Virus record (IMG/VR): IMGVR_UViG_3300037071_005032
Span: 1 to 46,016 of that record
Strand: one strand, 5' to 3'
Origin: a virus
Length of the DNA: 46,016 nucleotides
Every line of letters starts with the position of its first letter. Position 1 is the stretch's first letter. The notes beneath the pieces are model-generated. The model was not told the origin of the DNA. It ran no database searches and worked only from the letters and a program-made list of their open reading frames with translations. This document shows positions 1 through 46,016 of this stretch, piece after piece. The position numbers were made by a program, and so were the translations under genes.

Positions 1-126
1 CGGGTGCAAGCCGAGCTCGGTGCAGACGCCGGTCGCGTGGGAGATGACCTCGGAGGTGATCTCGAACAGGCGCTCCGGCCCGCGCTTCTTCGTCGAGAAG
101 ACGCTCGTCCCGCACGTGCAGGCGAT
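1..126. repeat. Left copy of the 126-bp terminal direct repeat
   Basis: The first 126 bases are identical to 45890-46015. The next base differs (G at 127, C at 46016). This is what a circular or circularly permuted molecule looks like when it is assembled as a linear contig. The closed unit would be about 45,889 bp. The repeat lies inside a RuvC-like gene, so it is more likely an assembly overlap than a physical terminus. Confidence 0.9.
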
Positions 127-575: not shown

Positions 576-1327
576 AATCCCCTCCGTTCGAGCTCCAAGG
601 CTTCCTGCGCGAGCTCCGCCGCGACGCTCGGTTTGCCGTTACGCGGTTGTGCTGGGGCGCCGAGCCGCGGCCACCACTTCGCGAGTGCGTTCGCGGTCAA
701 CGTCGCGTCGGGGAAATGCGAGGCGTAGTTCTCTGCTCGTCGGAAGATCTCGCCGGGCGTGAGGACGAGCCCTTGGTTCTGCTCGGTCATGCGCTGGATC
801 CTCGACAGCGCGACGGCGATCCGCGCGGCGTTGCCCTTGTCTAGCTCGGCGAGGTTCAGCCCTTCGATCTCGCCGAGGGCGTCGAACTGTGGATTCCTGG
901 CGCGGAGCGCAAGAGACTCTTGGGGTTCTTCGTCTAGGGGTTCTACTTCAGGGGGTTCTACTACTGCAGACGGCTCGTCCGTCGGTGGGGTTGCCCGTCG
1001 GTGGGGTTCACCGGATACCGGTTTCCCGGAGGTTCGGGGCTCTGAACTGACGACGTAGTGTGTGGAGAGGCGGCCCTTGTCGTCGCGGACCTTCTCGATC
1101 CAGGCGTAGCCGGCGTCGCGGAGTTCGCGCATGATCGACTGCGCCGCTGTCCGCCCACACTGGTTCTCACGCTGAATGATGGCGATGGATGAGCGGACCC
1201 ACCCGGCGTCGTGGGACAGCAACGTGCACAGTCCGCCCTTCGCTGCCGGTGAGAGGCGAGCGTCGCGAAGGATCGAGTTCGGGATCGCCGTCCACGGGGC
1301 AGAGTGCTTGTCGATGCGAGTGCTCAT
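572..1327 (-). CDS. Helix-turn-helix phage replication initiator
   Basis: A 251-residue protein. I chose the ATG at 1327 (MSTRIDKHS) because it overlaps the upstream HNH stop (ATGA); five more upstream codons are open. Residues about 10-90 form a winged-helix region typical of phage replication initiators (SPAAKGGLCTLLSHDAGW, then RTAAQSIMRELRDAGY). A proline- and acid-rich linker (about residues 100-140) follows, then a C-terminal domain with an amphipathic ELAQEALELERRGL tail. The DNA of the linker carries five GGGGTT-core direct repeats (922-1008), like the iterons inside lambda gene O. The next gene looks like a helicase loader. No polymerase, primase or helicase gene is visible, so host replication proteins are probably used. 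Confidence 0.65.
   Translation of the reverse strand: MSTRIDKHSAPWTAIPNSILRDARLSPAAKGGLCTLLSHDAGWVRSSIAIIQRENQCGRTAAQSIMRELRDAGYAWIEKVRDDKGRLSTHYVVSSEPRTSGKPVSGEPHRRATPPTDEPSAVVEPPEVEPLDEEPQESLALRARNPQFDALGEIEGLNLAELDKGNAARIAVALSRIQRMTEQNQGLVLTPGEIFRRAENYASHFPDATLTANALAKWWPRLGAPAQPRNGKPSVAAELAQEALELERRGL
922..1008. repeat. Iteron-like direct repeats inside the initiator gene (candidate origin)
   Basis: Five GGGGTT cores start at 922, 937, 952, 987 and 1003. The first three extend to GGGGTTCT at a 15-bp period; the last two share CCGTCGGTGGGGTT (979-992 and 995-1008) at a 16-bp period. A 16-bp period puts the two copies in different codon frames, so the repetition is kept in DNA rather than in protein. 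The site lies within the linker of a replication initiator, as in lambdoid origins. That it is an origin is inference. Confidence 0.5.
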
Positions 1328-1677
1328 GGCGCACCACGCCACATGCGGAGCTGTCCGAGGCGCTCAGGACGTCGGAACCGCTTCTTCCTGCGCCGGGACG
1401 AAAGACCCCCGCTTATTTCTTGCATACGCTGCGATAGTCCGAGAGCCGCCCCGCAGAATGGACACGAACCTTCCAGTTCGAGGTTCTCCGGACGGTTGTC
1501 GGATCGGTCCCCGTTCACCCATCGGACACGTTCGCCCTTCTCGAGGGTTCTTCCGATGGCACGTCCCAGCACGACACGGTGCTCGTAGTCCCATCCGCCG
1601 TCGGGGGTGCGGACCCTCACGTAGCCGGCGCGGGTGACCTTGCGGTCGTGGGGCTCACGCGGGCGCCCCCTCCTCAC
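1324..1677 (-). CDS. HNH homing endonuclease-like protein
   Basis: A 117-residue protein. The GTG at 1677 is chosen because it overlaps the stop of the upstream zinc-finger gene (GTGA). The core (about residues 20-65) reads YEHRVVLGRAIGRTLEKGE, then WVNGDRSDNRPENLEL. This is the HNH_3-type core with catalytic His in 'EHRVV' and the 'NGDRSDNRPENL' segment that normally supplies the second His/Asn positions. The usual 'v.H.nG' His is replaced by 'WVNG', so activity is uncertain. The C-terminus is basic (SSRRRKKRFRRPE) with a CPFC pair nearby. Such genes are often mobile within phage genomes. Confidence 0.7.
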   Translation of the reverse strand: MRRGRPREPHDRKVTRAGYVRVRTPDGGWDYEHRVVLGRAIGRTLEKGERVRWVNGDRSDNRPENLELEGSCPFCGAALGLSQRMQEISGGLSSRRRKKRFRRPERLGQLRMWRGAP

Positions 1678-1838
1678 GGCGCCGAGTTCCACCACACGCT
1701 CTCCGAGTCCTGGATCATCCCGATCGCCCGCAGCCACGAGTCGTCCGCGCACCACTGGCCCGCGACGTGGCGGTCATACGCCCGGGCGTGGCCGAACCAG
1801 CGGCCGCACGTCTCACAGAGCAGCGGGAAGGTGCTCAC
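1674..1838 (-). CDS. Small zinc-finger protein
   Basis: A 54-residue protein from GTG 1838, which overlaps the previous stop (GTGA); its own stop overlaps the next start in the same way. Residues 8-30 have the spacing C8-x2-C11-x12-H24-x5-C30, within CETCGRWF and YDRHV, followed by an IGMIQ segment and a Trp-rich tail (VWWNSAP). This matches a family of small zinc-binding proteins common in actinobacteriophages. Function unknown; DNA or protein binding is likely. Confidence 0.7.
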   Translation of the reverse strand: MSTFPLLCETCGRWFGHARAYDRHVAGQWCADDSWLRAIGMIQDSESVWWNSAP

Positions 1839-5130: not shown

Positions 5131-5420
5131 GATGCCTCCTCGAGGTCTGGGTGGGATAGCTCGATCAGCAGGTTCAGCACCGTCAGGCGTGGGTCGCCGT
5201 CGCGACGGATGCGCTCGAGCGAGACGCCGGCGTCGACGAGACGCTTGATGACGCGGATCGTCTGAACGTCCGGGAGTGACCACCTGCGAGGGTCCCCGCT
5301 GCCGGACGTGGCGCGGATCGACGGCGAGATGAGGTCGCTGTTGGCCCAGTGGTCGAGTTGCCTGAAGCTCACGCCGGTCAGGCGACAGACCTCATCCGAG
5401 GAGTAGGCGGTCTCAGTCAC
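5127..5420 (-). CDS. MerR-family helix-turn-helix protein
   Basis: 97 residues from GTG 5420, overlapping the HNH stop (GTGA). Residues about 7-75 form a MerR-like winged helix: YSSDEVCRLTGVSFRQLDHWANSDLI, then PRRWSLPDVQTIRVIKRLVDAGVSLERIR. This fits a DNA-binding regulator or an excisionase-like protein. It lacks an effector domain. It lies near the start of the leftward operon, two genes from the XRE repressor. Confidence 0.75.
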   Translation of the reverse strand: MTETAYSSDEVCRLTGVSFRQLDHWANSDLISPSIRATSGSGDPRRWSLPDVQTIRVIKRLVDAGVSLERIRRDGDPRLTVLNLLIELSHPDLEEAS

Positions 5421-5818
5421 GAGGCCTGCCTTGCTCGCTGATAGCGAAGAGCGGCGGCGCGGTTGCAGGCTCGACAACAACGTCGCGTCTGTGTGCGCTC
5501 ACGAAGGACATAGGTGTTTGCTTCGTCGTATGGGTGACCCTTTGGACAGTGGGTCTTGCGAGCGTTCACAGCGGGGAAGCCCTCGCCGCGTAGGGTGTTC
5601 TCACGGCGAGTAACGGGTTCGAGATGATGAACGTTCACGCAGGCCCGGTTTCGGCATAGATGGTCTAGTTCCAGGCCATCTGGGATCGGGCCAACCTGCT
5701 CTAAGTAGGCGACTCTGTGGGCTAAGGCTCCTGAACGGCCGTTCCACCAGCGCTTGCCATAGCCGTCCTTGCTCCGGGTTCCGGTCCATTCGACACACGG
5801 CGTTGTCAAGTCGAGCAT
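5417..5818 (-). CDS. HNH endonuclease
   Basis: 133 residues, ATG 5818, directly after the repressor stop. It has the typical HNH_3 layout of phage homing enzymes: CVEWTGTRSKDGYG, then AHRVAYLEQVGPIPDGLELDHLC (catalytic LDHLC), NRACVNVHHLEPVTRRENTLRG, and a C-terminal zinc ribbon (CPKGHPYDEANT, then CCRACNR). All expected His and Cys positions are present, so it looks intact. It is unlike the second HNH gene at 1324-1677, which has a degenerate core. It probably inserted between the repressor and the rest of the operon. Confidence 0.85.
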   Translation of the reverse strand: MLDLTTPCVEWTGTRSKDGYGKRWWNGRSGALAHRVAYLEQVGPIPDGLELDHLCRNRACVNVHHLEPVTRRENTLRGEGFPAVNARKTHCPKGHPYDEANTYVLRERTQTRRCCRACNRAAALRYQRARQAS

Positions 5819-6160: not shown

Positions 6161-6472
6161 ATGGCTCTGAACATGATCGACCGAGCAGAGTTGGGGATGC
6201 GTCTTCGGATGCTGCGGTTCAGGTGCGGCGATCCGGCCGCAGCGACGGTCGCCGAGATGACCGGCGGTAAGGTGAGCGAAAGCTCGATCCTTCGGTGGGA
6301 GCAGGCGAAGAACGGCAGCTCACACGAAGGGCTTGCTATCCTCTGCGCGGTTTATGGGCGCCTGTTGAATGAGGTCTTCACCGTCCCGCTCGAGGTGACG
6401 GTCACCGACCTGCTCAACCCCCATTACGACACGCGGGTGTGGTTCAATGCCCTCCAACACGCGGCCGCGTAG
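6161..6472 (+). CDS. XRE-family helix-turn-helix regulator (Cro-like position)
   Basis: 103 residues, ATG 6161 with GAGGAA 6 bases upstream. Residues about 10-75 resemble an XRE domain: LGMRLRMLRFRCGDPAAATVA, then VSESSILRWEQAKNGSSHEGLAILCAVYG. It is transcribed away from the repressor and runs directly into the integrase, whose start lies 26 bp inside its 3' end. It could be a Cro-like protein or an integrase regulator. Confidence 0.65.
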   Translation: MALNMIDRAELGMRLRMLRFRCGDPAAATVAEMTGGKVSESSILRWEQAKNGSSHEGLAILCAVYGRLLNEVFTVPLEVTVTDLLNPHYDTRVWFNALQHAAA

Positions 6473-7388
6473 TCATCTCGCACTAGTACAGCCGTCGTAT
6501 GGCCCCGCGATCGTCTCCGATGCAAAACTTCCGAACGTCGCGCCCGCCGGCGTCGGGATCATGGACTTCCCCACGGCGCTCCGTCTGTTCCACGCGAGCC
6601 TCGAGCTCGCCGGTCACGCCGCGCGTACCCGCCAGCACTACGCCTACGAACTCACCGGGTTCTGGATCTGGTGCGCGCTTCAGGCTCCCCCGGTCGACGA
6701 TCTATTCGGGGTCACGTCCGCCACCATCTCGGCATACGTAACCTCGTTCGATCCCCACGGCTCCAAGCGCGGCGATGCGCTGCGTGCGATCAAGGCGTTC
6801 TGTCGCTGGTCCGTCGACGAGGGCTATCGCTCGGCAGATCCGTCAGCACTCATGCGAACCCCTCGCCCGCGCGTCAACCGTCAGGCGCCCGACATCCCCG
6901 CCGGCCACCTGGTGCGGATGCTCCGTTCGGCCTTCCACCGGGAACCTCGGCGAGGGTGGAACCTGCTGCTGCTGTACTCCACGGGCTCGCGGATCGGTGC
7001 CTACTGCGCCGTGCGTCCGTCCGACGTCGACCTCGAGCGCGGCCTGATCTACTTCTCGACGACGAAGAACGACCGCCCGTATGAGCTCGGGCTCGCGCAC
7101 AAGCAGCTCGTGGCCGCCCGTCATGTCGTCGGCTTCGGGCACGATCCTATCCCCGGCGTGGGTTCCGCGCAGCTCCGTAACTGGCTGCACGACGCGGAGC
7201 AAGACGCTGGGCTGCCGCGGATGTGGCCGCACCTGCTGCGCCACGCGTTCTCGCACCGCGTGGCCGCGAACTGCGGCGGTGACCCGGAGCTGTGGCGCAT
7301 CGCCATGAACCACGCGGACCTGTCTCAGTGGTCGACGTACAACACGCGCACGCTCGACGCCGTGACACACGTGATCGAGGCGGTGTAG
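6447..7388 (+). CDS. int: Tyrosine-family integrase (full length)
   Basis: 313 residues. The first ATG (6447) overlaps the previous gene by 26 bp; an internal ATG at 6561 is possible. Residues about 40-135 are the core-binding domain (FHASLELAGHAARTRQHYAYELTGFWIW). The catalytic domain carries Arg182 (TGSRIGAY), Lys207 (TTKNDRP), His262 and Arg265 (HLLRHAF), His289 (MNHADLSQ) and Tyr298 (STYNTR), so all six active-site positions are present. It should integrate the phage at an attB site; I could not identify attP. A second, shorter recombinase lies downstream on the other strand. Confidence 0.88.
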   Translation: MPSNTRPRSHLALVQPSYGPAIVSDAKLPNVAPAGVGIMDFPTALRLFHASLELAGHAARTRQHYAYELTGFWIWCALQAPPVDDLFGVTSATISAYVTSFDPHGSKRGDALRAIKAFCRWSVDEGYRSADPSALMRTPRPRVNRQAPDIPAGHLVRMLRSAFHREPRRGWNLLLLYSTGSRIGAYCAVRPSDVDLERGLIYFSTTKNDRPYELGLAHKQLVAARHVVGFGHDPIPGVGSAQLRNWLHDAEQDAGLPRMWPHLLRHAFSHRVAANCGGDPELWRIAMNHADLSQWSTYNTRTLDAVTHVIEAV

Positions 7389-7397
7389 CGTCGACGT

Positions 7398-7553
7398 GTG
7401 GAGTGGTCCGGCTGGCGTCTAGCGGTGCTGAACGTTGTAAGCGTGGCGCTGATGCTCGCCGTTGGCCTCGTGGGCGTCTGGGTCGGGATCTGGCTGATCC
7501 TGTTCATCGGAGACCACGCTTTCGACTACGGCAAGGTCTGTCAGCTCTGCTAG
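7398..7553 (+). CDS. Possible 51-residue membrane protein downstream of the integrase
   Basis: An open frame from GTG 7398, 9 bases after the integrase stop. Residues about 7-37 are strongly hydrophobic (RLAVLNVVSVALMLAVGL, then WVGIWLILFIG), followed by a short tail with two Cys. Codon third positions are GC-rich like real genes here. It overlaps the leftward frame at 7419-7670, so at most one of the two is likely to be a full gene. Confidence 0.4.
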   Translation: MEWSGWRLAVLNVVSVALMLAVGLVGVWVGIWLILFIGDHAFDYGKVCQLC

Positions 7554-7670
7554 ACAGCGATCGTAGAGCTCCTGATAGCTCACACGCTCGAGGTCCGGTC
7601 GCATCGGCATGATCGGCGTGCGCGGTACCCAGTTCGGTAGGAACGATCCTCGCATCCCTGGATCTGTCAT
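7419..7670 (-). CDS. Small hypothetical protein coupled to the minimal recombinase
   Basis: 83 residues from ATG 7670, overlapping the recombinase stop (ATGA) and preceded by GGAGGAG about 10 bases upstream. The N-terminal 55 residues look protein-like (RPDLERVSYQELYDRCLAEL). The C-terminal part (DQPDPDPDAHE) is antisense to the membrane frame at 7398-7553 and has weaker codon bias. Could be an excision or accessory factor; no family recognised. Confidence 0.45.
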   Translation of the reverse strand: MTDPGMRGSFLPNWVPRTPIMPMRPDLERVSYQELYDRCLAELTDLAVVESVVSDEQDQPDPDPDAHEANGEHQRHAYNVQHR

Positions 7671-8248
7671 CGTTGTCGTCTCCTCCATCGGGCACGTCGC
7701 GCGTTCGCCTGTAGCCTCAAGGTTTTCGAGGCTCCCCAATACAACCGTGTCGTCGTCGTCGACGAGTGGCCGGCCATCTCCGCCACGATCTCGATCGGCG
7801 TGCCTGATTCGACCCATTGAGTTACCGCAGAATGACGGAAACGATGGGCGTGCGCGTGCACACCTGCCTTCTTCCCTAGCTCAGCGATGACGTAGCGTAG
7901 CCCACGATCTGACCAACCGATGAGGTGACCGTTGTGCGCGTGGGATCGCATCACTTCGGAGGCCCGTAAGGCCGTCGGCGTCAGGATCACCGTTCGTTCC
8001 TTCGAGCCTTTGCCGATGATCCGGATGAGGTGCGAGTGTCGTGGACATCCCGCGCGCCGGCACCACCACGGCACCGTCGGCCATTCCCTGACCTCGGCTG
8101 AAGTGATGGAGCAGGCTTCCGCTGCCCGTAGACCTGTTTCGTTGAGGAACTGGCACGTAGCCCAGACCTCCGGTCGGGGTCTCGCCGCCAGTTCGAGTGC
8201 GCGCATCTCAGCCGGCGTGAACGGGACCGGAAGCCGTCGAGTGCTCAA
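7667..8248 (-). CDS. Minimal tyrosine recombinase (catalytic domain only)
   Basis: 193 residues from TTG 8248, overlapping the upstream HTH gene stop (TTGA). The whole protein is a catalytic domain: Arg41 (ETGLRAAEACS), Lys83 (GKGSKERTV), His135 and Arg138 (HRFRHS), His161 (MAGHSS) and Tyr170 (TTTTRLYW). The N-terminal core-binding domain of normal integrases is absent. Between Arg41 and Lys83 is an unusual insertion with Cys63, Cys68, His71 and His73, a possible zinc site. The C-terminus is very basic (RRARWRRRQR). The HTH protein encoded upstream may supply DNA binding. Possible roles are excision, resolution or a DNA switch. Confidence 0.8.
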   Translation of the reverse strand: MSTRRLPVPFTPAEMRALELAARPRPEVWATCQFLNETGLRAAEACSITSAEVREWPTVPWWCRRAGCPRHSHLIRIIGKGSKERTVILTPTALRASEVMRSHAHNGHLIGWSDRGLRYVIAELGKKAGVHAHAHRFRHSAVTQWVESGTPIEIVAEMAGHSSTTTTRLYWGASKTLRLQANARRARWRRRQR

Positions 8249-8463
8249 TCGAGGTCACCCCAGGACTTGCGTCGAGCGTGGAGCACCTGTTTCGTGACAC
8301 CGAGCTCCCGAGCGATAGCGGCCTCGGTGACGTCGTCCGCGATCGCGGCTCGCACCGCAGCGCGTTCTTCGGCGCCCAGCGCCTTCTTGCGGTCCTTCAC
8401 ACGGCGCAGGCGTCCACGGTGCGGGGCCGGCACGGTCGAGGGCTTGCGAGGCACGCGAGACAT
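8245..8463 (-). CDS. Small helix-turn-helix protein upstream of the minimal recombinase
   Basis: 72 residues if started at ATG 8463 (MSRVPRKPS); the open frame extends to 8526. A basic N-terminus (HRGRLRRVKDRKKAL) is followed by a helix-turn-helix (AAVRAAIADDVTEAAIARELGVTKQVLHARRKSW). Its stop overlaps the recombinase start, so the two are co-translated. It may guide the recombinase, which lacks its own core-binding domain, or act as a local repressor at the nearby inverted repeat. Confidence 0.65.
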   Translation of the reverse strand: MSRVPRKPSTVPAPHRGRLRRVKDRKKALGAEERAAVRAAIADDVTEAAIARELGVTKQVLHARRKSWGDLD

Positions 8464-8496
8464 CGTATCCGTTCCCATGCCCTGATGGTCGCATAC

Positions 8497-8528
8497 CTTT
8501 GACTTCTCACGCAAGAACAACGTCAAAG
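8497..8528. promoter_or_regulatory. Inverted repeat upstream of the HTH-recombinase pair
   Basis: CTTTGAC (8497-8503) and GTCAAAG (8522-8528) are perfect 7-bp arms 18 bp apart, 34 bp upstream of the leftward HTH gene. The right arm supplies a TTGAC element on the minus strand. Candidate operator or recombinase-binding site. Confidence 0.4.
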
Positions 8529-8545
8529 AAATACGACCTTATCGC

Positions 8546-8592
8546 TTGACTCCTGACACCCTCCCGCCGATGATGCGTACAAGAAGTTGTAC
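8546..8592 (+). promoter_or_regulatory. Rightward promoter with palindrome at the start site
   Basis: TTGACT (8546-8551), 17 bp, then GATGAT (8569-8574) form a fair sigma-70-type promoter. The inverted repeat GTACAAGAAGTTGTAC (8577-8592) sits at the predicted start, as an operator would. It precedes the gene at 8616, which has a GGAGGAAGG ribosome site. Confidence 0.5.
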
Positions 8593-8615
8593 CCACCGAC
8601 CGGAAGGAGGAAGGG

Positions 8616-8786
8616 ATGACGGTCACGCTGATCTACAGCAACGGCCGCACCAAGGAGGTCGGGTTCCGCGAGCGTTCCGACGCGCGCCGGGGCCTCCCCT
8701 CCCCGTACTTCCAGCAGGGCTACCGCGACCAGTTCGGCATCGTTGCCGTGTTCGTGGGGACCCCAGACGACAGGGAGGCAGCATGA
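8616..8786 (+). CDS. Small hypothetical protein (56 aa)
   Basis: 56 residues, ATG 8616 with GGAGGAAGG just upstream. Sequence has a beta-hairpin start (TVTLIYSNGRTKEVGF) and a globular middle (SPYFQQGYRDQFGIVAVFVG). Its stop overlaps the next start (ATGA). Family not recognised. Confidence 0.65.
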   Translation: MTVTLIYSNGRTKEVGFRERSDARRGLPSPYFQQGYRDQFGIVAVFVGTPDDREAA

Positions 8787-8986
8787 AGCGCACCACGGTC
8801 AGAAGGATCGCCCTCGCCGCGATCGCAGCCTCGGCTTTCACCGCCGGCGTCGCCCACGCGCAAGGATCGCATCCGAACCGGATCGTGGTCCGCTGGTGTC
8901 CTGAGGATGCCGTGCAGTGGGGCGTCGGAGACTTCGACGGCACCAGGTGGGAGCGGTACCACTGCATCGCCCGCGACGACCTGTAG
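8783..8986 (+). CDS. Small secreted protein with signal peptide
   Basis: 67 residues from ATG 8783, overlapping the previous stop (ATGA). Residues 1-26 are a clear signal peptide: basic MKRTTVRR, hydrophobic core, and AHA before a likely cut at Gln27. The 41-residue mature part has two Cys (RWCPED, then YHCIARDDL) that could form one disulfide bond. A strong terminator follows. It lies in the lysogeny region, so expression in lysogens is plausible. Confidence 0.65.
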   Translation: MKRTTVRRIALAAIAASAFTAGVAHAQGSHPNRIVVRWCPEDAVQWGVGDFDGTRWERYHCIARDDL

Positions 8987-9009
8987 TCCACCCAGTACCG
9001 GCATGAGGG

Positions 9010-9027
9010 CCCGCCCTTCGGGGCGGG
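9010..9027 (+). terminator. Rho-independent terminator
   Basis: CCCGCCC, loop TTCG, GGGCGGG, followed by TCTTCTGTTGTG. It ends the small rightward operon 8616-8986 and marks the left edge of the gene-poor region. Confidence 0.8.
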
Positions 9028-9097
9028 TCTTCTGTTGTGTCCACCGTGCATGGAGGGAGTGGACAGGGGTCAGGTGTTGCGTCGTAGTTGCGTCGTA

Positions 9098-9132
9098 TAC
9101 GTAGACCGTTAGGACTATGGTACGTAGACCGT
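9098..9132. repeat. Pair of 12-bp direct repeats
   Basis: TACGTAGACCGT occurs at 9098-9109 and 9121-9132, 23 bp apart, in a locally less GC-rich stretch with further TACGTA elements. About two helical turns separate the copies, so regulator or recombinase arm-type binding is possible. Confidence 0.5.
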
Positions 9133-9388
9133 ACTACGTAGCCTGTTGGCTGTATCCTGTATGACTCTGTCACTCAATGGCCCCATCCTCTGCTACCTAC
9201 TTCAACACTAAGCGGCAGGGCCATGGATCGTGGCCTTAACCCCCCCACACCTGCTCGATTGCCCCCGTATCCCCTGCTCAGAGCGCCGAACGCTGGGGCG
9301 GGAGAACGGGACCGGGGTGGACCCCACACCCCCACGTATAACACTCATAGGAGGCCGCCCACGTAGGCGTCACCCACAAGACCCGTTG

Positions 9389-9397
9389 TGCTACAAT
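9389..9397 (+). promoter_or_regulatory. Extended -10 promoter candidate
   Basis: TGCTACAAT is an extended -10 element (TGnTACAAT, five of six -10 bases matching). No convincing -35 is visible. Transcription would begin near 9404-9405, exactly where the first of several hairpins begins. Confidence 0.45.
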
Positions 9398-9423
9398 CCC
9401 TCTCGACCTACCCGGGTCAAACG

Positions 9424-9461
9424 GTGTCAGGGGCCTCGTCGTTCGGCGGGGCCTCAGACAC
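9424..9461 (+). ncRNA. Long stable hairpin (structured RNA element candidate)
   Basis: Stem 9424-9428/9457-9461 (GTGTC/GACAC), an A-A mismatch, then 11 further pairs from 9430/9455 to 9440/9445, closing a GTTC loop. Three of the pairs are G-U, so the structure is better as RNA than as DNA. No T-run follows, so it is probably not a terminator. It lies about 20 bases after the predicted start of transcription. Confidence 0.45.
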
Positions 9462-9929
9462 GTTCAGGCGCAGTTCCCCCGGGTCCTACCCCCGCTGTTC
9501 GCCGCGGTACGCGCTCTTTTCGAGATCCCATGGAAGTCGCTGCTGATAACGGTCGCATGGGAGGTTTCCCTCGGCTCTGACCCGGGTCCGCCGCAGGCAA
9601 CGACACCTTGCGCGCGCCGGAGACATCGGCTCTCTCCGGTGAGGACTACGCGTTGGATGCTCGAAGACGTGTCAAGGAGGAGCGGTGTCACAGGGCCTTG
9701 GTAGGGTGCGGTTGGTTCTGATGGACCGTGGGGTGTCCAGGTCGACTGAACCGGGACCGTCGGGGGATCGAGCCTCCGGCGGGCGAGTGGCTCGGGCTCT
9801 CGCACCGGAGGAAGAGGCCATACGGACGGCCGACGGTGCGGATGGCCACGGGGGAAGGGTTCCCCACTCGGTGCCATTGGTGGCGGGTGGAGGGGCCCTT
9901 TCCCTTGACCAGGGGCAGAACGTGTTCGC

Positions 9930-10037
9930 ATGATCGCTTGGTTGAAGAAGCTGTTCGGGCTCAAGACCGGCCCCACGAACTGTTGTCCGCCCGGGGAGTG
10001 CAACTGCTGCGCCTCGTGCATCTGCGGTGGACCGTAG
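9930..10037 (+). CDS. Cysteine-rich mini-protein (35 aa)
   Basis: 35 residues from ATG 9930: an amphipathic start (MIAWLKKLFGLK) and a C-terminal half with seven Cys (NCCPPGECNCCASCICGG). The stop is directly followed by the ATG of the next gene. It might bind metal or a membrane. No family recognised. The adjacent chain of small genes supports it as coding. Confidence 0.5.
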   Translation: MIAWLKKLFGLKTGPTNCCPPGECNCCASCICGGP

Positions 10038-10148
10038 ATGATCGCCTGCGTCTGGCACGACCTGTTCCAGGCGGGGTGCTACCTCGCGGTGGCGTCCTCG
10101 GCGCTGGTCGTGTACTTCGGGGCGCCGTTCCGCCGGCGGTCGCGCTAG
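10038..10148 (+). CDS. Small membrane protein (36 aa)
   Basis: 36 residues from ATG 10038, directly after the previous stop. One membrane helix (AGCYLAVASSALVVYFGA) followed by a basic end (RRRSR), giving an N-out, C-in topology. Function unknown. Confidence 0.5.
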   Translation: MIACVWHDLFQAGCYLAVASSALVVYFGAPFRRRSR

Positions 10149-10155
10149 GAACGAT

Positions 10156-10275
10156 GTGCTCGCCGCGACGACCGAGACCTCGGATGTCGTATTCGCGATC
10201 GCGTTTTCCGCCGGAGGCGTCTTGATCGCGGCGCTGGTGGGGTTGTGGATCCGATCGAGGAGGCGCAAGCCGTAG
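10156..10275 (+). CDS. Small membrane protein (39 aa)
   Basis: 39 residues from GTG 10156. A short N-terminus (VLAATTETSD), one membrane helix (VVFAIAFSAGGVLIAALVGL) and a basic end (RSRRRKP). Another small single-pass protein in a row of tiny genes ahead of the terminase. The alternative frame starting at ATG 10154 is Arg/Pro-rich and not credible. Confidence 0.5.
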   Translation: MLAATTETSDVVFAIAFSAGGVLIAALVGLWIRSRRRKP

Positions 10276-10458
10276 ATGGCGAAGGCCCACGTCGTCCCCT
10301 GCCAGGACTGGATCGAACACGAGTCCTCAGACGATTGCGTCTGCGGTCCGGACATCCGCTTCGTCGACGGTGGCTACATCGTCGTACACCACTCGCTCGA
10401 TGGTCGAGAGCGCCCGCTTTCCGCGGAGGCGAAAGAGCTGCTCGAGGAGGAGGACTAG
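10276..10458 (+). CDS. Small hypothetical protein (60 aa)
   Basis: 60 residues, ATG 10276 directly after the previous stop. Contains CQDWIEHESSDDCVCGPDIRFVDGGYIVVHHSLDG, with three Cys and a His cluster, and an acidic C-terminal helix (EAKELLEEED). This resembles small conserved proteins seen near terminase genes in actinobacteriophages. Function unknown. Confidence 0.65.
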   Translation: MAKAHVVPCQDWIEHESSDDCVCGPDIRFVDGGYIVVHHSLDGRERPLSAEAKELLEEED

Positions 10459-10584
10459 GTGCCGGGCAAGCAGGTCAAGAACTGGCCGATGTACGAGAAG
10501 CTCCGGTCGAAGGGGAAATCGAAGACCTCGGCCGCGAAGATCACGAACGCGGCGGCGGCCAAGAAGAAGAAACGCGCGAAGTGA
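10459..10584 (+). CDS. Small basic protein of the 'KNxxMYExLRxKGxSKxxAAxIxN' type
   Basis: 41 residues, GTG 10459 directly after the previous stop; its own stop overlaps the terminase start (GTGA). The sequence VKNWPMYEKLRSKGKSKTSA, then AKITNA and a Lys-rich end match a short conserved actinobacterial/phage family; I believe it is catalogued as DUF7218, but this was not verified. Likely binds nucleic acid. Confidence 0.65.
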   Translation: MPGKQVKNWPMYEKLRSKGKSKTSAAKITNAAAAKKKKRAK

Positions 10585-12890
10585 CCAAGCCGAAGTCGAA
10601 GACGATGCTCGCGCGTGAGGCCGCTCACGAGCGCCGCATGACGATCACGCGTCTAGCGCTGTTGGGGAAGAACGCGACCGAGATCGCTGCCGAGCTCGGG
10701 GTGACCAAGACGAGGATCTACTCCGATACTCAGTGGCTCCGCGATCACGGTTACCTGCGGGTCGGCGACATCAAGCCGGACTACGTGAAGCCGAAGGCCC
10801 GTCCCAACGTCCCGCGCGGAGAGATGCATTGGAAGTCGCACGCCGCGTACCAGGCCAAGCAGACGCTTCTGCTCGATCGCGTGCGCGAGGGCGAGGACTA
10901 CAAGGCGGTCGGTGACGAGATGAAGGTTCCGCGTTCGACCGCCTATGCGTGGGTGAAGGCCGCAGGGCTGTTCACGGGTGAACCTCGGCACACGCATCCG
11001 GTCAAGACTGACCCGGAGTGGGCGGCGAAGAAACGCGATTTCCTCGGCCTGGTCGCCGAGGGGATGCCGGTCAAGCACGCGGCGCTTCAGCTCGAGATCT
11101 CGCAGACGACGGCGACCCGGTGGAAGGACGAGGCCGGGATCAAGGCACCGGGCAAGCGCACGCTGAAGTCCTCCCACGCTCCGATCCCCTACGACGACCT
11201 CGAGTGGTCGGCCAAGAAGGCGTGTGAGGATTTCGCCTACTACAGCTCGTATTTCCTCGGGATGGAGTGGCCGCCGTGGGCCGTCATCGCCGCGAACACG
11301 TTGCTCGAGAAGTACCACTCCCCCGAGGACGAGTACGTCGTGATGAACGTCGGGCCGGGGTTCGGAAAGACCACGCTCGTCACCTACGCGTTCGCCTCGT
11401 GGATCGCCGCTCGCGAGCGCGCGATGGGATCGGAGCCACGAGCCTCGCTCGGCCATGCGTCGTGGAACAAGGCCACGTGGTACGCGAAGCGGTTGCGGAC
11501 GACCTGGACCTACAACGAGAAGCTCATCAAGGCGTTCGGTCGGTTCAAGCCGGAATCGAACCTCGCACCGTGGTCGGTCGAGGAGCTCCTCGTCGAGCCG
11601 CTGAAGTGGGAAGCGTTGCGAGAGAAGGAACCTACGGTCACGGCACAGTCCTACGAGGGCTCGATCCTGTCGGGGCGTTACGGGCTCATCATCTGGGACG
11701 ACCTGATCGACAAGCGGAACTCTTCGACGGCGGAGGGTCGCGAGAAACTCGCCGACTGGTGGGAACGAGACGCCGAGGGCCGTCTCGAGCCCGGTGGGCT
11801 GCTCGTGTTGAGTAACGCGCGGTTCGGGCCGGAGGATCTGTCGTGGCAGGTCCGCCAGACGTTCGACTACGACAACATCGGTGATCCGAACGACGAGGGC
11901 CCGCCGCGTCAGCTCTACACGCAGATCGCGTTTCCCTCCCACGCCGAGCGCGACTGCAACGCGGCGACCACTGGTGGACACACCGGCCCGTGGCCGAACG
12001 GGTGTCTGCTCGACCCCGAGCGTGGATCCTGGAAGCGACTCAGTCACTTCCTCGTGAAGAACGAGGGTCGGTTCCGCCTCGTGTGGCAGCAGGAGGACAC
12101 CGACCCGATGGGCTTCCTCGCCGAGCGGATCTGGTTCGAGGGCGGCACCGATGTTCGCGGGGTGGATCACAAACCCTGTTTCAACTACACGCGCAAGATG
12201 GGCGACCTCCCCGAGCGCGAGGACTCGCCCTTGTTGTCGCTGATGTCGATCGACCCGTCCTCATCGCACTACTGGGCGCTCGAGCATTGGCTCGTGTACC
12301 CCGATGAGCAACAGGTGCTGCTTCGTGGCGAGCGCTCGATCCTGAAGGTCCACGAGCTGCTGTACGAGCCGAGCGCCGGCGTCTACACCGGCAAGCTCGA
12401 AAGCTATTGGCAGGCAGCGCTTTCCAAGGGGGTCCCGTACACGTTCCTCGTCTACGAGATGAACATCCAGAAGGCGCTCCCGGAGATGCCCTACTTCAAC
12501 GACTGGGCCGCCTCGCGGGGTATTGTTCACCTGCCCCACACGACCACGCGGAACAAGACCGACCCGGATTCCGGGGTGGAGATGTTAGGCCAGCTCTATC
12601 GCGCCGCGAAGGTCGACCTGCCGTATGACGGCGTCGACGCGCGGATCTTCTCCGATCAGTTCCGTCGCGAGGCGTGCGCGTGGCCGGAGGGAGCGACCGA
12701 CGACCTCATCATGTGTCACTGGTTCCCGAACCACAAACTCGCGAACCTGATCCTGTCGGTGCAGGGGTGGAGCGACGAGAACGACTACGACGCGACACCG
12801 TCGTGGGCCACACGAGGGACCCCGACATGGGCGCAGAGTCGTCTCGGTGGCGCTCGCCTCCGTGACACGTCATCCACCATTCCCGCATGA
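10581..12890 (+). CDS. terL: Terminase large subunit with three N-terminal helix-turn-helix motifs
   Basis: 769 residues from GTG 10581 (GTGA overlap). Three HTH-like segments precede the motor: residues 28-54 (NATEIAAELGVTKTRIYSD), 104-128 (DYKAVGDEMKVPRSTAYAWV) and 158-186 (GMPVKHAALQLEISQTTATRW). The ATPase domain has a Walker A at 258-265 (GPGFGKTT) and a Walker B ending in Asp373-Asp374 (LIIWDD). The C-terminal nuclease has LMSIDPSSSHYW and a late acidic motif in ATDDLIMCHW. The protein cuts concatemers and drives DNA into proheads. No separate small terminase is visible, so the HTH array may recognise the packaging site. Confidence 0.9.
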   Translation: MTKPKSKTMLAREAAHERRMTITRLALLGKNATEIAAELGVTKTRIYSDTQWLRDHGYLRVGDIKPDYVKPKARPNVPRGEMHWKSHAAYQAKQTLLLDRVREGEDYKAVGDEMKVPRSTAYAWVKAAGLFTGEPRHTHPVKTDPEWAAKKRDFLGLVAEGMPVKHAALQLEISQTTATRWKDEAGIKAPGKRTLKSSHAPIPYDDLEWSAKKACEDFAYYSSYFLGMEWPPWAVIAANTLLEKYHSPEDEYVVMNVGPGFGKTTLVTYAFASWIAARERAMGSEPRASLGHASWNKATWYAKRLRTTWTYNEKLIKAFGRFKPESNLAPWSVEELLVEPLKWEALREKEPTVTAQSYEGSILSGRYGLIIWDDLIDKRNSSTAEGREKLADWWERDAEGRLEPGGLLVLSNARFGPEDLSWQVRQTFDYDNIGDPNDEGPPRQLYTQIAFPSHAERDCNAATTGGHTGPWPNGCLLDPERGSWKRLSHFLVKNEGRFRLVWQQEDTDPMGFLAERIWFEGGTDVRGVDHKPCFNYTRKMGDLPEREDSPLLSLMSIDPSSSHYWALEHWLVYPDEQQVLLRGERSILKVHELLYEPSAGVYTGKLESYWQAALSKGVPYTFLVYEMNIQKALPEMPYFNDWAASRGIVHLPHTTTRNKTDPDSGVEMLGQLYRAAKVDLPYDGVDARIFSDQFRREACAWPEGATDDLIMCHWFPNHKLANLILSVQGWSDENDYDATPSWATRGTPTWAQSRLGGARLRDTSSTIPA

Positions 12891-15006: not shown

Positions 15007-15396
15007 ATGCCGCGACCGGGAACCATCGAGCCGCGCGCCGGTGCTGATGCTCCGTTCGGTGCCACGGCAGCACTTCAGCGGATGGCCCAAGCCATCCCAG
15101 TCACGGCCGAACAGGCCGCGGCAGCACCGAACCAGCCGAAAGACGCGGCTCCCGACCCCGAGCTCGATCCGAACGTCGAGCTGAACGGCGGATACGACAA
15201 GGCGCTGTTCGGCGCGACCGCGCGGCCCGATGAGCCCGTGACGCACGGCGCTCCGTTCGGCGACGGGGCCAACTGGACGCCCAAGCCCAACGAGGACGAC
15301 TACACGTTCCTGCTCCGCGTCGCCGACGACCTCGACGCCTCTCCGCTCGCTCGTTCCCTGCAGACCTACACCGCGAAGATCCGTCGGGGGGTCTAA
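15007..15396 (+). CDS. Hypothetical virion-region protein
   Basis: 129 residues, ATG 15007. Ala/Pro-rich N-terminal half with two similar segments (GADAPFGATAALQ, then GAPFGDGANW) and a C-terminal helix (DDYTFLLRVADDLDASPLARSLQTYTAKIRRG). The stop overlaps the giant-protein start (TAATG). May be a partner or chaperone of the giant protein; that is inferred from position only. Confidence 0.6.
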   Translation: MPRPGTIEPRAGADAPFGATAALQRMAQAIPVTAEQAAAAPNQPKDAAPDPELDPNVELNGGYDKALFGATARPDEPVTHGAPFGDGANWTPKPNEDDYTFLLRVADDLDASPLARSLQTYTAKIRRGV

Positions 15397-18300
15397 TGCC
15401 CCAGCAGGCCGGGGGCACCGGTGGGGAGGAGTTCCCCCAACCGATCCCCACCGATACGATGCTCGACAACCGGCCGCCGCCGGTACGAAAGACCCCTGAG
15501 CAGCGACTCGCCCACATCGAGGATCTGTCGGGCGGAACGCTCCCGTCTTCCCTCGGACTGGCGCTCGCGCAGTCGAACATGGACGACCCCGGCATCGCGC
15601 GCGCATCGACGCTGCTCGCCCATCAGTTCGATCTTCCTCCGTCGTGGTTCTTCGACAAGTCACGGCCCGCGATCGTCGACTTCGCACGCGCGCGGCGTGA
15701 GGACTACACCGCGCCGGTGGCTTCCTTCCACGAACCCGGCGACCCGACGCGCGACCTCTCGTGGGCCACCGCGAAACGTATCGTGCGCCCGTTCGAACCG
15801 GCGGTCATCTCCTCGATCCTCGGCTCTAAGGGTTACGTCGAGGGTGACCCCAAGACCGCGCGACTCATCAAGGTCGTCGAGGCGATGGCCCCGATCGCTG
15901 GTGAGGACGTCGCGTTCACCAACGTCCTAGCCGCGGCGGAGCAGATAGCTTCCTCCCAGCTTGACCCCACGCTGTTCGCCTCCAACCTACGGGTCGCTGC
16001 GTCCTCGCCGTCGCTCCCGCCGCTCGCCTCGATCGCGCTCGCCCAAGAGGCGACCGAGCAGGGACTTGCGTTCCAGACTCTCGCCGATGTCGCGAAGCTC
16101 GCGATCCCCGACGTCGCTGAAGGCATCGACCAGGCAGCCGAGCTCCGTCGGCGACGCGATCAACTGACACCGGAGTACATCGCGGTGCACCCCGAACTCG
16201 CGGCGCCACAGCTCCCCGGAACCCCCGGATACGTCGAGCCCGGCCAACTCCTCAAGGCATCGCTCGGTGCTGGGGTCGTCGGCGCGTTCCAGCTCCCCGG
16301 CCGCCTCGCGGACATGATCCAGGAGCGCCAGATGGACTACGTCATCGCCGGCCAGGAGCTCGCGGCCCAGACGAAGATCCCGTTCTCGAACTCGATCGTC
16401 GGCAAGGCCGTCGGCAAGGTGCTGAACGTCATCAACCGTCCGCTCGGCGCGATCGTGCGCGTCGGGTTCACCCCGATCACATCCTTCACCGATAAGAACC
16501 CAGGGTTCGATACCGAGGGGTTCCGCGATGCGTGGGACATCCTCAAGGGAGCGACGAACGAGTTCACCGAGCTCGAGGAGGCCGGGGTCCCGTGGTACAT
16601 GACCGCCGCGGTCGAACTCGCCATCTCGGTCGGGTTCGACGTGCCGGGAACGAACATCCACGTCCCCTCGCTCGATCCGCTCATCTTCATCGGCCAGATG
16701 CGCGCCTCGACGAACCTCGGCCGCACGGTCTTCGGTGTCGCCGAGAAAGGCCAGATCGACCGGTGGCCGTCCTTCGTCGAGAACTGGATCCGCGGTCCGG
16801 TCGGCAAGATCGGGGACATGCGCAATCTGTCGGTGTCGAAGTACCTGCTGCGCGAGGCCGACCGCGCGCGCAACCCCGAGATCGCGTTCACACGGGCTGT
16901 GGACAACTTCCGCACGACGTTCGGGACCGAGGGTATACACCCGATGGTCTCGGAGCGGATCTGGCGATGGGCGAACTCGACGCGCGGCAAGATCCCCGAG
17001 GAGATGCGCCTGCGCGGTGTTGAAGGCGTGCTGCTCGGCGGGCTCGGCGTAACGCCGGAGATCGGGTCGCTGTCCGAAGACGTCTCGCGTTACGTGCGCG
17101 CCGCGCGCGAGACGACGAGGGTCGAGCTTCCCCCCGCGATCGAGGCGATGGCGAGGTTCAACGCCAACCGCGGGCCGGTCGCCGTCGCCGAGGGGCTGGG
17201 CCACGATGCCGAGACCGCGCTCGGCGTGCTTTCTGACACGAGCCTGTCCCTCGTCAACCACGGTGCTCAGATGGTCGAGCTCCCCCGTCTCGCCGGTCCG
17301 GTGACGCGTCTGGAACACACGCTTCGGACCTCCGGCATGGCCGACACCGGAATGGGCCGTTGGGTGCGCCACGTCGTCGGGCTGGCACCCCGTCAGGTCG
17401 GGACGTCGCTCGTGCTGAACATCGAGGAGGCCGGTCAGGCCGAGCGCGACTTCCAGCGCTACCTCATCCGCTCGCGCCTGTACTCGCCGGAGGAGATCGC
17501 GAAGGGACGGCTCGAGTTCAACGCGGCCGTGCGCGCCGATAACCCGACGCGCGAGCTGAACTTCATGGACGTGATGCAGCGCTACGACAAGGACTCGATC
17601 TCACGCCTCGCCAAGTCCTACGGGATCGACCAGTCGTGGATGGACGACATCGTCGAGAAGCTCGACTCGAAGTTCGGCTCCCGGCGCAAGCAGGTCTTCG
17701 GTGTGGAGACGAAGACCGGGGCGACCGGTACGCTCGAGCCGCAGGAGGTCCGCGACCCGTTCATGGTGACCCAGCGGCCGAACGAGTGGACGCTTCACGA
17801 CCCGGTGAAGATGCGTGAGGGCATCGCGGAGACGATCGGCACGTGGCGCCAGTACCGCTCGGCCATCGCCAAGCACTTCCCTGCCGGGGTTCCCGGAGCC
17901 AAGCCCGTGCACATCCCGCTCCGCCGGTTCACCGACGACATGGGCGACCTGCTCGTTCGCGATCTGTTCATGTCGTGGTGGAAGCCGCTCGTCGTGGCCC
18001 GGCCCGCCTATGTCCTTCGCGTCGCCGGGCTCGAGGAGCAATCGCGTTTCATCGCCACGGTCGGACTGACCCGGCGTCTCGAATCCGGTCCGCACGGCGC
18101 GCGTGTGCTGTCACGGCTTGACGCGTTCCGTTCGGAGGCGCGCGGTGGCGGGTTCGCCGACATCCCGGTCGAGGGACTGACCGAGCCCCTGCGGTTCCCT
18201 CGACCGGGGATGCTCCCCAACGAGCCGCTCGCGAACAACGTCGCGTCCCGCTATGCGCTCGCCTCCGAGGAGGGTCCGGCGCGGCGGATGTTGCAGTCGA

Positions 18301-21300
18301 TGATGCCGGGCAAGTGGGGCGTCGTCGAGCCGAGCGACCCCCACTTCTACGACTGGTGGTTCAACGGGCTCGCGCATCAGTTCGGGCTCGATCCGCTCGG
18401 CCGGCGCTACCTCGACGACGTCGCGCGCGGGCTCGGCGAGCAGGAGTCCGCCGACGCCGCGATGCGCTGGCTGCTCGACGGCAAGGGCGAGGGTCCCCGC
18501 TACGTGCAGCGCCTCATGGGCCAACCGCTCGGCGAGGTTTCCATCGAGGCGATACGCGGCCAGGTCGAGCGCGGCGTTCGCATCGCTCGCGACCTCACGC
18601 GGGGGAACAAGAACATCGCGACGGCCGCGCGCGATGGGCTGCTCCGTCTCGAAGACCTCAAGCTCATCCCGAAGAAAGACCTTCCGCCGTTCGTCGCGGG
18701 TCCGCTCGCGCACGAACAGGTGCTCGCGAAGGTCGGGCCCGGCAAACGCGCGCTCGACGCGTGGACGCGCTGGATCCTCGAGGAGCCGACGAACCGTCTC
18801 TCCCGCCAGCCCTACTTCAAGTCGTGGTACGACCGCGTTTACCACGCGCTCGTGACCGAAGCGCAGGCGTCCGGGCAGGAACTCACGCCGGAGCTCATCA
18901 AGGGGTTTCAGCAGACGGCCAAGCGCTTCGGCGTGACGCAGGTGCGTCGCATCATGTTCGACCTCTCGCGTCAGGGACGGATCGACGAGATGACGTCGGG
19001 CCTCCTCGTGTTCGTCCAGCCCTACCTCGAGTGGCCGGTCGCCTGGTCCCGCATCATCCGTCAGAACCCCGCGGTCGTGGGCTACGTCACGCGACTGGGG
19101 CGTCTCGCGACGGAGTCGGGGTTCGTCCGCAAGGACCCGGACACCGGTGAGATGGTCGTCCCGCTGTCGTGGTGGGCCGGCGCCGCCCCGTTGCTGGCGG
19201 CCCTCACCGGCGGGCATATGTCCCCGGCGTTCAAGGGCGGCGGCTGGGAGCTGTCGGTCCCGCTGACCTCGTTCAACATGTTCGCGTCCTCGACGTTCGG
19301 CATCCCCACAGGCGGGCTCGCGGGCGACCTGCCGATCCCGCTGCCGAACTTCAACCCGGAGGCACTCGGTATCATCCAGCAGCTCGTCGCCCACGACGCG
19401 CTCGTCCCCGGCGACCTGAGTGCATCGCTCAAGGCGAAGCTGTCGTCGTGGCTGTTCGCCTACGGCGAGGTCTCCCCGGCCAACCCCGCGGCGCTATTGC
19501 CGGCGTACCTTCGCCACGGGCTCATGGCCGCGATGGGCGAGACGTGGTTCAAGAAGGAGACGGACCTGCAGGCGACGAACTTCCTGCAGGTGCAGCAGGC
19601 GATGGGCCTCGAGCCGAACGCCGACCATGCCACCGCTCAGGCGCGCGAGTACGCGGGGCTCAGAGCGTTCTTCGCGTTCGTGTTCCCCGGCGCTCCTCGC
19701 ATCGAGTTCCCGACCGTCGAGATCGAGCGCGAGTGGTCCGACATGGTCGAGACCTCGCCGTCGTACTCCGACGCGATCACGGCTTGGGGCGTCAAGCACC
19801 CGGACCTGTCGCTCATCCCGCTCGCGCGCACGATGTGGGCCGCCGACAATCCCTCCCCGGTGCCGATCTCGCCGAACGCGTTCGTCGGCCAACTCCTCGA
19901 GACCAAGGGCGCTGAGCAGTTCGCGAAGGACCATCCGCGCTGGGTCTGGGCGATCATCCCGCACGAGTTGCAGGAGGGCGAGCTCGACTTCGGATCGTGG
20001 TTCGCCCAGCTCGCCTCGGGCCAGCGCGAGGTGCTATCCCCGGAGCGGTTCCTCGGTGAGGATCAGATCCAGAAGGGTTGGGACGCCTATTTCATGGAGC
20101 GCGATGCGTGGCTCGCGTGGCAGGAGGCGCATCCCCAGATCGGTATCGGCGATCCGTCGTATGAGCAGAAGTCCAACGAGTACCAGCTCGCGATCGAAGA
20201 CCTCCGCGAGACGAACCCGGACTGGGGCGTCATCTCCGGCAACATCGACATCTCCGGCGTCGACCCGAACGTCATGGCGGAATCGCGTTCACTCGCGCGC
20301 GACAAGACGTTCACCAAGACCGACGTCGGCAAGGGCCTCGTCGCCTACCTCGCGCTCCGCGACAGCATCTCCGACGATCTTGCGGCCCACGGCGCCTCGT
20401 CGATCCAGACGGTGCTCGCTGAACGCCTCGGTCTGGCGAGCGAGTTCACCGACGGTGTGGCCGACATCGTGGACCAGTACCCGGACTTCAACACCGCCTA
20501 CCGCCTGTTCTTCGCCTCGGACCTGCAACACGTGGAGACGGCCGGGGACAAGGCACTCGCGGGTGTTCCCCAAGACGTCTACGACGACAAGATCACGCCC
20601 TGGTGGGATCGGTACGAGCGGCTGAAGGACAAGCCGAACCTCGCGGGCAACGTGAACGACCGCAACGCCGCATACGAGGGGATCCGGATGTTCGTCGAGC
20701 GGGCCTACGAGGAGTTCCCGCGTTCCCAGAACCCGATGATCCTTCGCTGGAAGACCTATGACGATTCCGAGCGCCAGGACTACCTCGTGTCGATGATCGG
20801 TCGATCCTACGGGTTCAACTCGCGGTTCGACCGGGTCGAGCTGCTCGGCGACAAGAGCTCGAAGGCGGCCGAGAAGTTCTGGACCGACTACAACACCGCG
20901 CGCACCGCGATCTCGAACCAGGACGACCACGACCCGAACTTCGCCGCCGGCGACGCCTACACCGCGCTCGACCGCTGGGTGCTCGGGCAGGCGGCGAAGA
21001 ACCCCATCATCCGCAACCAGCTCGAGGCGTCGAACACGTGGGGGTACGCGTTCCGCAAGGTGCTCCCCGAGATGTTCCCCCAGCGGCGCCGATCCCAACC
21101 GTACTGGGACGCGTTCCTTGACTCGGTTGCGACGGTTCAGCAGGTGGTCATCGCGAAGGAGTTGCATGGCGACGCTTCGTTCGACCCCAACGAGAAGGTT
21201 CTGTACACGCGGCTGAAGGAAGTGTTGGAGGGGTACGTGGGCACGTTGCGTGAGGAGAACCTTCAGTTCCGCGAACAGTGGCGCTTCCTCGAGGACGCTT

Positions 21301-45511: not shown

Positions 45512-46016
45512 TCAAACGGTTGCGTCTAGCGGCCTCACCTCCGGCCACTCGATGCGCGCGAGCGCCTCGCGCATGTAGTCCGTCACGTTGGGGCGGGTCG
45601 CGTAGTAGGGGTCGTTCAAGGCGCTCGATCCCATATAACGCAGCAGGTGAGCGTCGGCCTCGTTGTTGTTGGTGCCCTCGAACCCGAACCGACGGATGGC
45701 AGCGGAGATCATGTCGTCCTTGCCCGCATTCCCCTTCCCCGTCGCGAACTTCTTCAGCACCGCCGGCGGCACGTCGACGTAGCGCAGCTCGTGGCGCCAC
45801 AGCGTCATGCGGATGCAGCCGCCCAGCTCGCCCATGAACTCGGACTTGAACTTCGAGTTGAACGAGTAGCCCTCGATGACGACGAGCGCCGGGTGCAAGC
45901 CGAGCTCGGTGCAGACGCCGGTCGCGTGGGAGATGACCTCGGAGGTGATCTCGAACAGGCGCTCCGGCCCGCGCTTCTTCGTCGAGAAGACGCTCGTCCC
46001 GCACGTGCAGGCGATC
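45512..46016 (-). CDS. RuvC-like Holliday junction resolvase, C-terminal part (continues at the left end)
   Basis: Remainder of the resolvase that begins at 168 once the circle is closed. It carries VVIEGYSF (Glu 62 of the joined protein), then KKFATGKGNAGKDDMI and NNNEADAHLLRYMG, the last acidic motif. All RuvC-type catalytic positions therefore appear in the joined 181-residue protein. The gene ends 48 bp before the secreted transglycosylase gene. Confidence 0.8.
   Translation of the reverse strand, partial: IACTCGTSVFSTKKRGPERLFEITSEVISHATGVCTELGLHPALVVIEGYSFNSKFKSEFMGELGGCIRMTLWRHELRYVDVPPAVLKKFATGKGNAGKDDMISAAIRRFGFEGTNNNEADAHLLRYMGSSALNDPYYATRPNVTDYMREALARIEWPEVRPLDATV
45890..46015. 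repeat. Right copy of the 126-bp terminal direct repeat
   Basis: Identical to 1-126. The final base of the window (46016, C) does not match position 127 (G). Both copies fall in the same place of the same gene, which supports a circular unit. Confidence 0.9.

What the first reader, a model, noticed from the sequence alone, without database searches (positions are those of the whole stretch)
9028..9929. A 900-bp gene-poor, hairpin-dense region may encode a large structured phage RNA
Seen: the rest of the genome is packed (gaps under about 120 bp), but this stretch has no credible gene. It contains at least eight inverted repeats, several with G-U pairs, three CCCGGGTC copies and an extended -10 element at 9389-9397. 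Known: phages of Gram-positive bacteria can carry long non-coding RNAs of 600-800 nt (for example GOLLD and ROOL), and some short-tailed phages carry a packaging RNA. Inference: this may be such an RNA, or a structured leader of the late operon, just before the packaging genes. GC-rich DNA makes hairpins by chance, so this needs testing.
Basis: partly seen in the sequence, partly recalled or inferred. Interest (0 to 1): 0.7.

Follow-up and report, generated by a model that had tools for sequence, protein, structure and literature searches.

The report
Late-operon control region of a phage
The stretch without obvious genes in this short-tailed phage of a high-GC bacterium looks like the switch region in front of its DNA-packaging genes (terminator, promoter, leader with one strong hairpin, probably a small gene), not a giant structured RNA, although distant Streptomyces relatives carry a real, undescribed RNA element at the matching place.

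Summary
Bases 9036-9684 carry no coding signal. Two hairpins are exceptional: 9420-9464 (z -5.6) and 9850-9905 (the most stable 54-nt fold on the + strand of the whole record). The extended -10 at 9389-9397 is the only one in the genome, and every CCCGGGTC of the genome lies at 9411-9588. But the region as a whole folds no better than shuffled sequence (894 nt, z -0.45), its stem count is ordinary, and it matches no Rfam family, so a GOLLD/ROOL-like RNA or a packaging RNA is not supported. The last 249 bp are probably a gene: AAGGAGG, GTG, 82 codons, ATGA overlap with the next small ORF (0.13% of shuffles). Best reading: upstream terminator, about 350 bp of control or packaging-end DNA, a late promoter, a leader of about 280 nt, then coupled small genes and terminase. 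No homologue of the region was found, so covariation could not be tested. The Beephvirinae, distant relatives, have the same layout (254-276 bp terminal repeat, promoter, 236-270 nt leader, terminase). In their leader I found an 80-nt covarying RNA element, absent from Rfam 15 and absent from this window.

The parts
8616..8986 (+). Two small genes (56 and 67 aa) of the preceding rightward operon
   Evidence: SD-led, coding-like codon usage
9005..9032 (+). Intrinsic terminator ending that operon
   Evidence: 12-bp stem, 4-nt loop, T-rich tail; the only terminator-like site found in 8400-10400
9076..9097 (.). Tandem 11-bp repeat (GTTGCGTCGTA x2)
9098..9146 (.). Three copies of TACGTAGACCGT (two exact, one with 2 mismatches); possible activator, repressor or recombinase sites
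   Evidence: the other 3 matches in the genome are scattered 2-mismatch sites, at about the number expected by chance
9389..9397 (+). Extended -10 promoter element TGCTACAAT (no good -35)
   Evidence: only TGNTANAAT in the window
9411..9588 (.). Three CCCGGGTC-centred palindromes (9411, 9478, 9579-9588)
   Evidence: all copies in the genome
9420..9464 (+). Strong leader hairpin, 19 bp, about 20 nt after the inferred start of transcription
   Evidence: -29.4 kcal/mol, z -5.55, 0/200 shuffles
9404..9684 (+). Inferred untranslated leader (start of transcription inferred from the -10)
   Evidence: no coding signal; folds as shuffled, z -0.06
9674..9680 (+). Shine-Dalgarno sequence AAGGAGG
   Evidence: 8 copies on the + strand of the genome
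9685..9933 (+). Probable 82-codon gene (GTG), first of the late operon, ATGA overlap with the next ORF
   Evidence: 0.13% of shuffles give such a frame; no homologue in phages
9850..9905 (+). 25-bp hairpin near the end of that ORF
   Evidence: -38.1 kcal/mol, lowest 54-nt fold on the + strand; z -2.92
9930..10584 (+). Five tightly packed small ORFs (35, 36, 39, 60 and 41 aa), most with stop/start contact; the 60-aa one matches phrog_2864 (4e-14)
10581..12890 (+). Terminase large subunit
   Evidence: phrog_38, 4.2e-23

Best explanation
This is the control region of the phage's late (packaging and structural) operon. Reading left to right: an intrinsic terminator closes the preceding small operon (9005-9032). 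About 350 bp of untranslated DNA with direct repeats follows, probably protein-binding sites and possibly the packaging end of the genome. A late promoter (-10 at 9389-9397) then starts an mRNA whose leader of about 280 nt opens with a strong hairpin. A good ribosome-binding site at 9674-9680 starts an 82-codon ORF, from which translation passes by stop/start overlaps through five small ORFs into the terminase. The hairpin most likely acts on the late transcript (attenuation and antitermination, or 5'-end protection). Shown: sequence features, their statistics, gene order. Inferred: promoter use, translation of 9685-9933, hairpin function, packaging end.
For: Terminator. Unique extended -10. 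Hairpin 9420-9464, z -5.55. SD-led, ATGA-overlapping ORF, 0.13% of shuffles. Terminase directly downstream; 60-aa neighbour in phrog_2864. Distant relatives by capsid, portal and terminase, the Beephvirinae, have the same order before terminase: terminal repeat of 254-276 bp, promoter, 236-270 nt leader with a strong hairpin about 70-90 nt after the TATA box in most, terminase. The window's -10 lies about 294 nt before the GTG. The record is a closed circle (1-126 = 45890-46015), so the packaging ends must lie somewhere inside it.
Against: No -35 box, no RNA-seq, no homologue of the region in phages, plasmids or any fetched IMG/VR locus. The ORF 9685-9933 has atypical codon usage (GC3 0.68 against 0.84) and no relatives. 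The Beephvirinae leader element is absent here. Many IMG/VR relatives of the terminase have no long gap before it. The packaging-end part rests on position alone.
Confidence: 0.6

Rival explanations
1. Mainly the DNA packaging site (cos, pac or direct terminal repeat) with its terminase-binding repeats; the RNA features are incidental.
For: In the Beephvirinae the terminal repeat lies in the non-coding DNA just before the late promoter and terminase; the window is a circularised genome; 9036-9390 has direct repeats and no coding signal.
Against: No sequence match to the Beephvirinae ends; no reads to map ends; the promoter and SD-led ORF explain the 3' half better.
Confidence: 0.2
2. A discrete, function-bearing non-coding RNA (about 300-530 nt from 9404) made in abundance, of a new family.
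For: Promoter-like element, two outstanding hairpins, 9404-9929 z -1.67.
Against: Leader 9404-9684 folds as shuffled (z -0.06), 9467-9684 worse than shuffled (z +1.06); no terminator-like site between 9404 and 10400; SD-led ORF in the 3' part; no Rfam match.
Confidence: 0.12
3. A GOLLD- or ROOL-like giant ornate RNA, or a phi29-type packaging RNA.
For: Length and phage context only.
Against: No Rfam match to any of these, even at E up to 10; no tRNA genes; overall z -0.45; terminase-type motor.
Confidence: 0.02

Closest known systems
Late-operon leader and genome end of Beephvirinae (Streptomyces phages Manuel, Dennebes, Immanuel3 and others)
   Same: Related capsid, portal and terminase; non-coding DNA, promoter, leader of 236-270 nt with a strong GC hairpin, then terminase as first large late gene.
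   Different: No sequence similarity in the region; the conserved 80-nt element of their leaders is absent here; the window has small ORFs before terminase, carries recombinases, and its ends are unknown.
GOLLD and ROOL RNAs
   Same: Phage-borne, non-coding stretch of several hundred nt.
   Different: No family match, no tRNA genes, no overall folding excess, SD-led ORF inside.
phi29 packaging RNA
   Same: Short-tailed phage, near packaging genes.
   Different: Terminase-type motor; no Rfam match.

Membership tests
GOLLD RNA | Match to the Rfam covariance model | tested here: not met
   No match at gathering threshold or at E up to 10
GOLLD RNA | Often near tRNA genes in phages and prophages (PMC12286853) | tested here: not met
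   ARAGORN finds none in 46 kb
ROOL RNA | Match to the Rfam covariance model | tested here: not met
Large structured RNA (any) | Folds better than dinucleotide shuffles over its length | tested here: not met
   894 nt z -0.45; 530 nt z -1.45 and, for nearly the same stretch, -1.67; local hairpins only
Large structured RNA (any) | Covarying base pairs among homologues | not testable with these tools
   No homologue of the region found; the closest relative, L238, is a 6-kb fragment that does not reach the region
phi29-type packaging RNA | Rfam match and phi29-type packaging ATPase | tested here: not met
   No match; terminase large subunit phrog_38
   Best window matches have E 0.42-0.94, none convincing
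Phage late-operon control region | Terminator upstream, promoter-like element, leader, start of packaging operon | tested here: met
   By sequence only; transcription not shown
Phage late-operon control region | Transcription start and late expression | not testable with these tools
   Needs RNA

The most novel reading that the evidence does not exclude
The leader 9404-9684, with its strong first hairpin, is a functional counterpart, too diverged to match, of the covarying leader RNA that I found before terminase in Beephvirinae and related soil phages. If so, short-tailed phages of high-GC bacteria would commonly gate late gene expression by a leader RNA of an undescribed kind.
Probability: 0.15. 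Interest if true: 0.55.

Novelty: new member of a known kind. Interest (0 to 1): 0.3.

Why it matters
For the window itself it matters little: it is where one expects the late promoter and perhaps the packaging end of a temperate relative of the Beephvirinae. Of wider use is the by-product: a conserved, covarying RNA element before terminase in Streptomyces short-tailed phages and some 20 metagenomic relatives, absent from Rfam 15, which makes RNA control of late genes in this phage group directly testable in laboratory Streptomyces strains.

Tried and rejected
GOLLD, ROOL or pRNA (no Rfam match). Covariation for the window: no homologue of the region in phages, plasmids or fetched loci; scans with terminase, capsid, tail and portal proteins gave nothing, only distant kin, or a 6-kb fragment that stops short of the region. 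That the window holds the Beephvirinae leader element: 9758-9791 looks similar by eye but scores 4.3 bits, E 0.89. That this element is a bistable switch (upstream CUCC pairing with the 5' arm of its hairpin): pairing is possible but shows no covariation. Long minus-strand frames 9464-10021 and 9672-10355 as genes: no family, no tblastn match for the longer one, coding signal negative. A tRNA-type att core near the region: the only match lies inside terminase.

Full report
What was seen. The window is a closed circular phage record: bases 1-126 repeat at 45890-46015, giving a unit genome of 45,889 bp. Its capsid, portal and terminase proteins are distant relatives of the Beephvirinae, short-tailed phages of Streptomyces (39%, 26% and 23% identity), and of many metagenomic phages (capsid up to 67% for one fragment, terminase up to 36%). 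The finding lies between a small rightward operon that ends in an intrinsic terminator (9005-9032) and a run of small ORFs leading to the terminase.

Is it gene-poor? No frame of 9036-9684 has the codon signature of this phage. The last 249 bp are different: AAGGAGG is followed after 4 nt by GTG and 82 open codons whose stop overlaps the next ATG (ATGA). The next two small ORFs have no good SD of their own and start at the stop of the one before. Among 4000 dinucleotide shuffles of the region 2.1% give any frame of 60 codons or more with such an SD, and 0.13% also the overlap. Codon usage is atypical (-0.17 bits per codon), but genes here with clear Pfam matches are about as atypical (recombinase 7667-8248, -0.11; HNH 5417-5818, -0.20). 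No relative of the 82-aa product is known. I take it as a probable gene, not a proven one.

Is it unusually structured? Over its length, no: z -0.45 for 9036-9929, -1.45 for 9400-9929, -0.06 for 9404-9684 and +1.06 for 9467-9684. Stems of 8 bp or more number 4, against 2.8 (sd 1.7) per equal tile of the genome. Two single hairpins are outstanding: 9420-9464 (z -5.55), directly after the promoter-like element, and 9850-9905, the most stable 54-nt fold on the + strand, which lies near the end of the probable ORF. Several nearly as stable hairpins lie inside coding genes (3826, 14569, 18160), so stability alone proves little.

Promoter and repeats. TGCTACAAT at 9389-9397 is the only TGNTANAAT in the genome (0.32 expected), without a good -35. 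All CCCGGGTC copies of the genome fall at 9411-9588; this was noticed after the fact and is suggestive only. Direct repeats lie at 9076-9146.

What the relatives show. In nine Beephvirinae the DNA before terminase holds a TATA-type promoter and then 236-270 nt of leader; in the three whose two ends I compared (Dennebes, Manuel, Immanuel3) a direct terminal repeat of 254, 276 and 275 bp comes first. The leader holds a strong GC hairpin, about 70-90 nt after the TATA box in most of them, and an element of about 80 nt with a covarying hairpin and an invariant 3' part, AGCCGCACGGCGNNTGAGTTGC. On 27 distinct sequences 86% of cells pair, against 31-50% when the partner is slid; 37 cells change on both sides, against 15 in shuffles; the covariation score is 0.233 against 0.087. 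The alignment was fitted to that structure, which favours it, and the sequences were collected by their invariant 3' part, so its invariance is by selection. It is not in Rfam 15. The window lacks it, as do the other tested relatives except two weak matches.

Interpretation. The layout promoter, leader with a strong first hairpin, SD, coupled small genes, terminase is what one expects of a late operon, and the distance from the -10 to the first start codon (about 294 nt) is close to that of the relatives. I therefore read the finding as the late-operon control region, perhaps with the packaging end in its 5' half. How the hairpin acts is inferred: an attenuator or antitermination target, or protection of the 5' end. 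The giant-RNA reading is rejected on the tests available. A smaller functional RNA remains possible and cannot be excluded without homologues or RNA data.

Limits. No conservation test of the region itself was possible.

Noticed in passing
L119:551-634, L003:526-610 and 25 further distinct sequences (L121-L155): An 80-nt RNA element in the leader of terminase of Beephvirinae and related metagenomic phages, with a covarying hairpin and the constant 3' part AGCCGCACGGCGNNTGAGTTGC; not in Rfam 15. Function unknown; a candidate new regulatory RNA.
   Followed up: partly
L132:5956-6045 (-): Second copy of that element, between two genes of the leftward operon and just before a terminator-like hairpin; suggests that it acts in cis on more than one transcript.
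   Followed up: partly
L003, L119, L121-L128, about 270-370: Palindromes of the type TGTGAC-N4-GTCACA (CRP-like) upstream of the late promoter of Beephvirinae.
   Followed up: no
L003:1-254 and L008:6710-6963: Direct terminal repeat of 254 bp in Dennebes (276 and 275 bp in Manuel and Immanuel3), shortly before the late promoter.
   Followed up: yes
window 6447-7388 (+) and 7667-8248 (-): Two tyrosine-recombinase genes, facing each other; the second has atypical codon usage and looks acquired (Pfam Phage_integrase 1.5e-16).
   Followed up: partly
window 5417-5818 (-) and 1324-1755 (-): Two HNH endonuclease genes (Pfam HNH_3).
   Followed up: no
window 1-126 and 45890-46015: Identical ends: the record is a circularised genome with a 126-bp overlap, unit length 45,889 bp.
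   Followed up: yes
window 15396-21386: A 1996-aa protein between portal and capsid genes, with a similarly large gene at the same place in Dennebes (6585-11492); likely an internal virion protein, weak phrog_10618 match.
   Followed up: no
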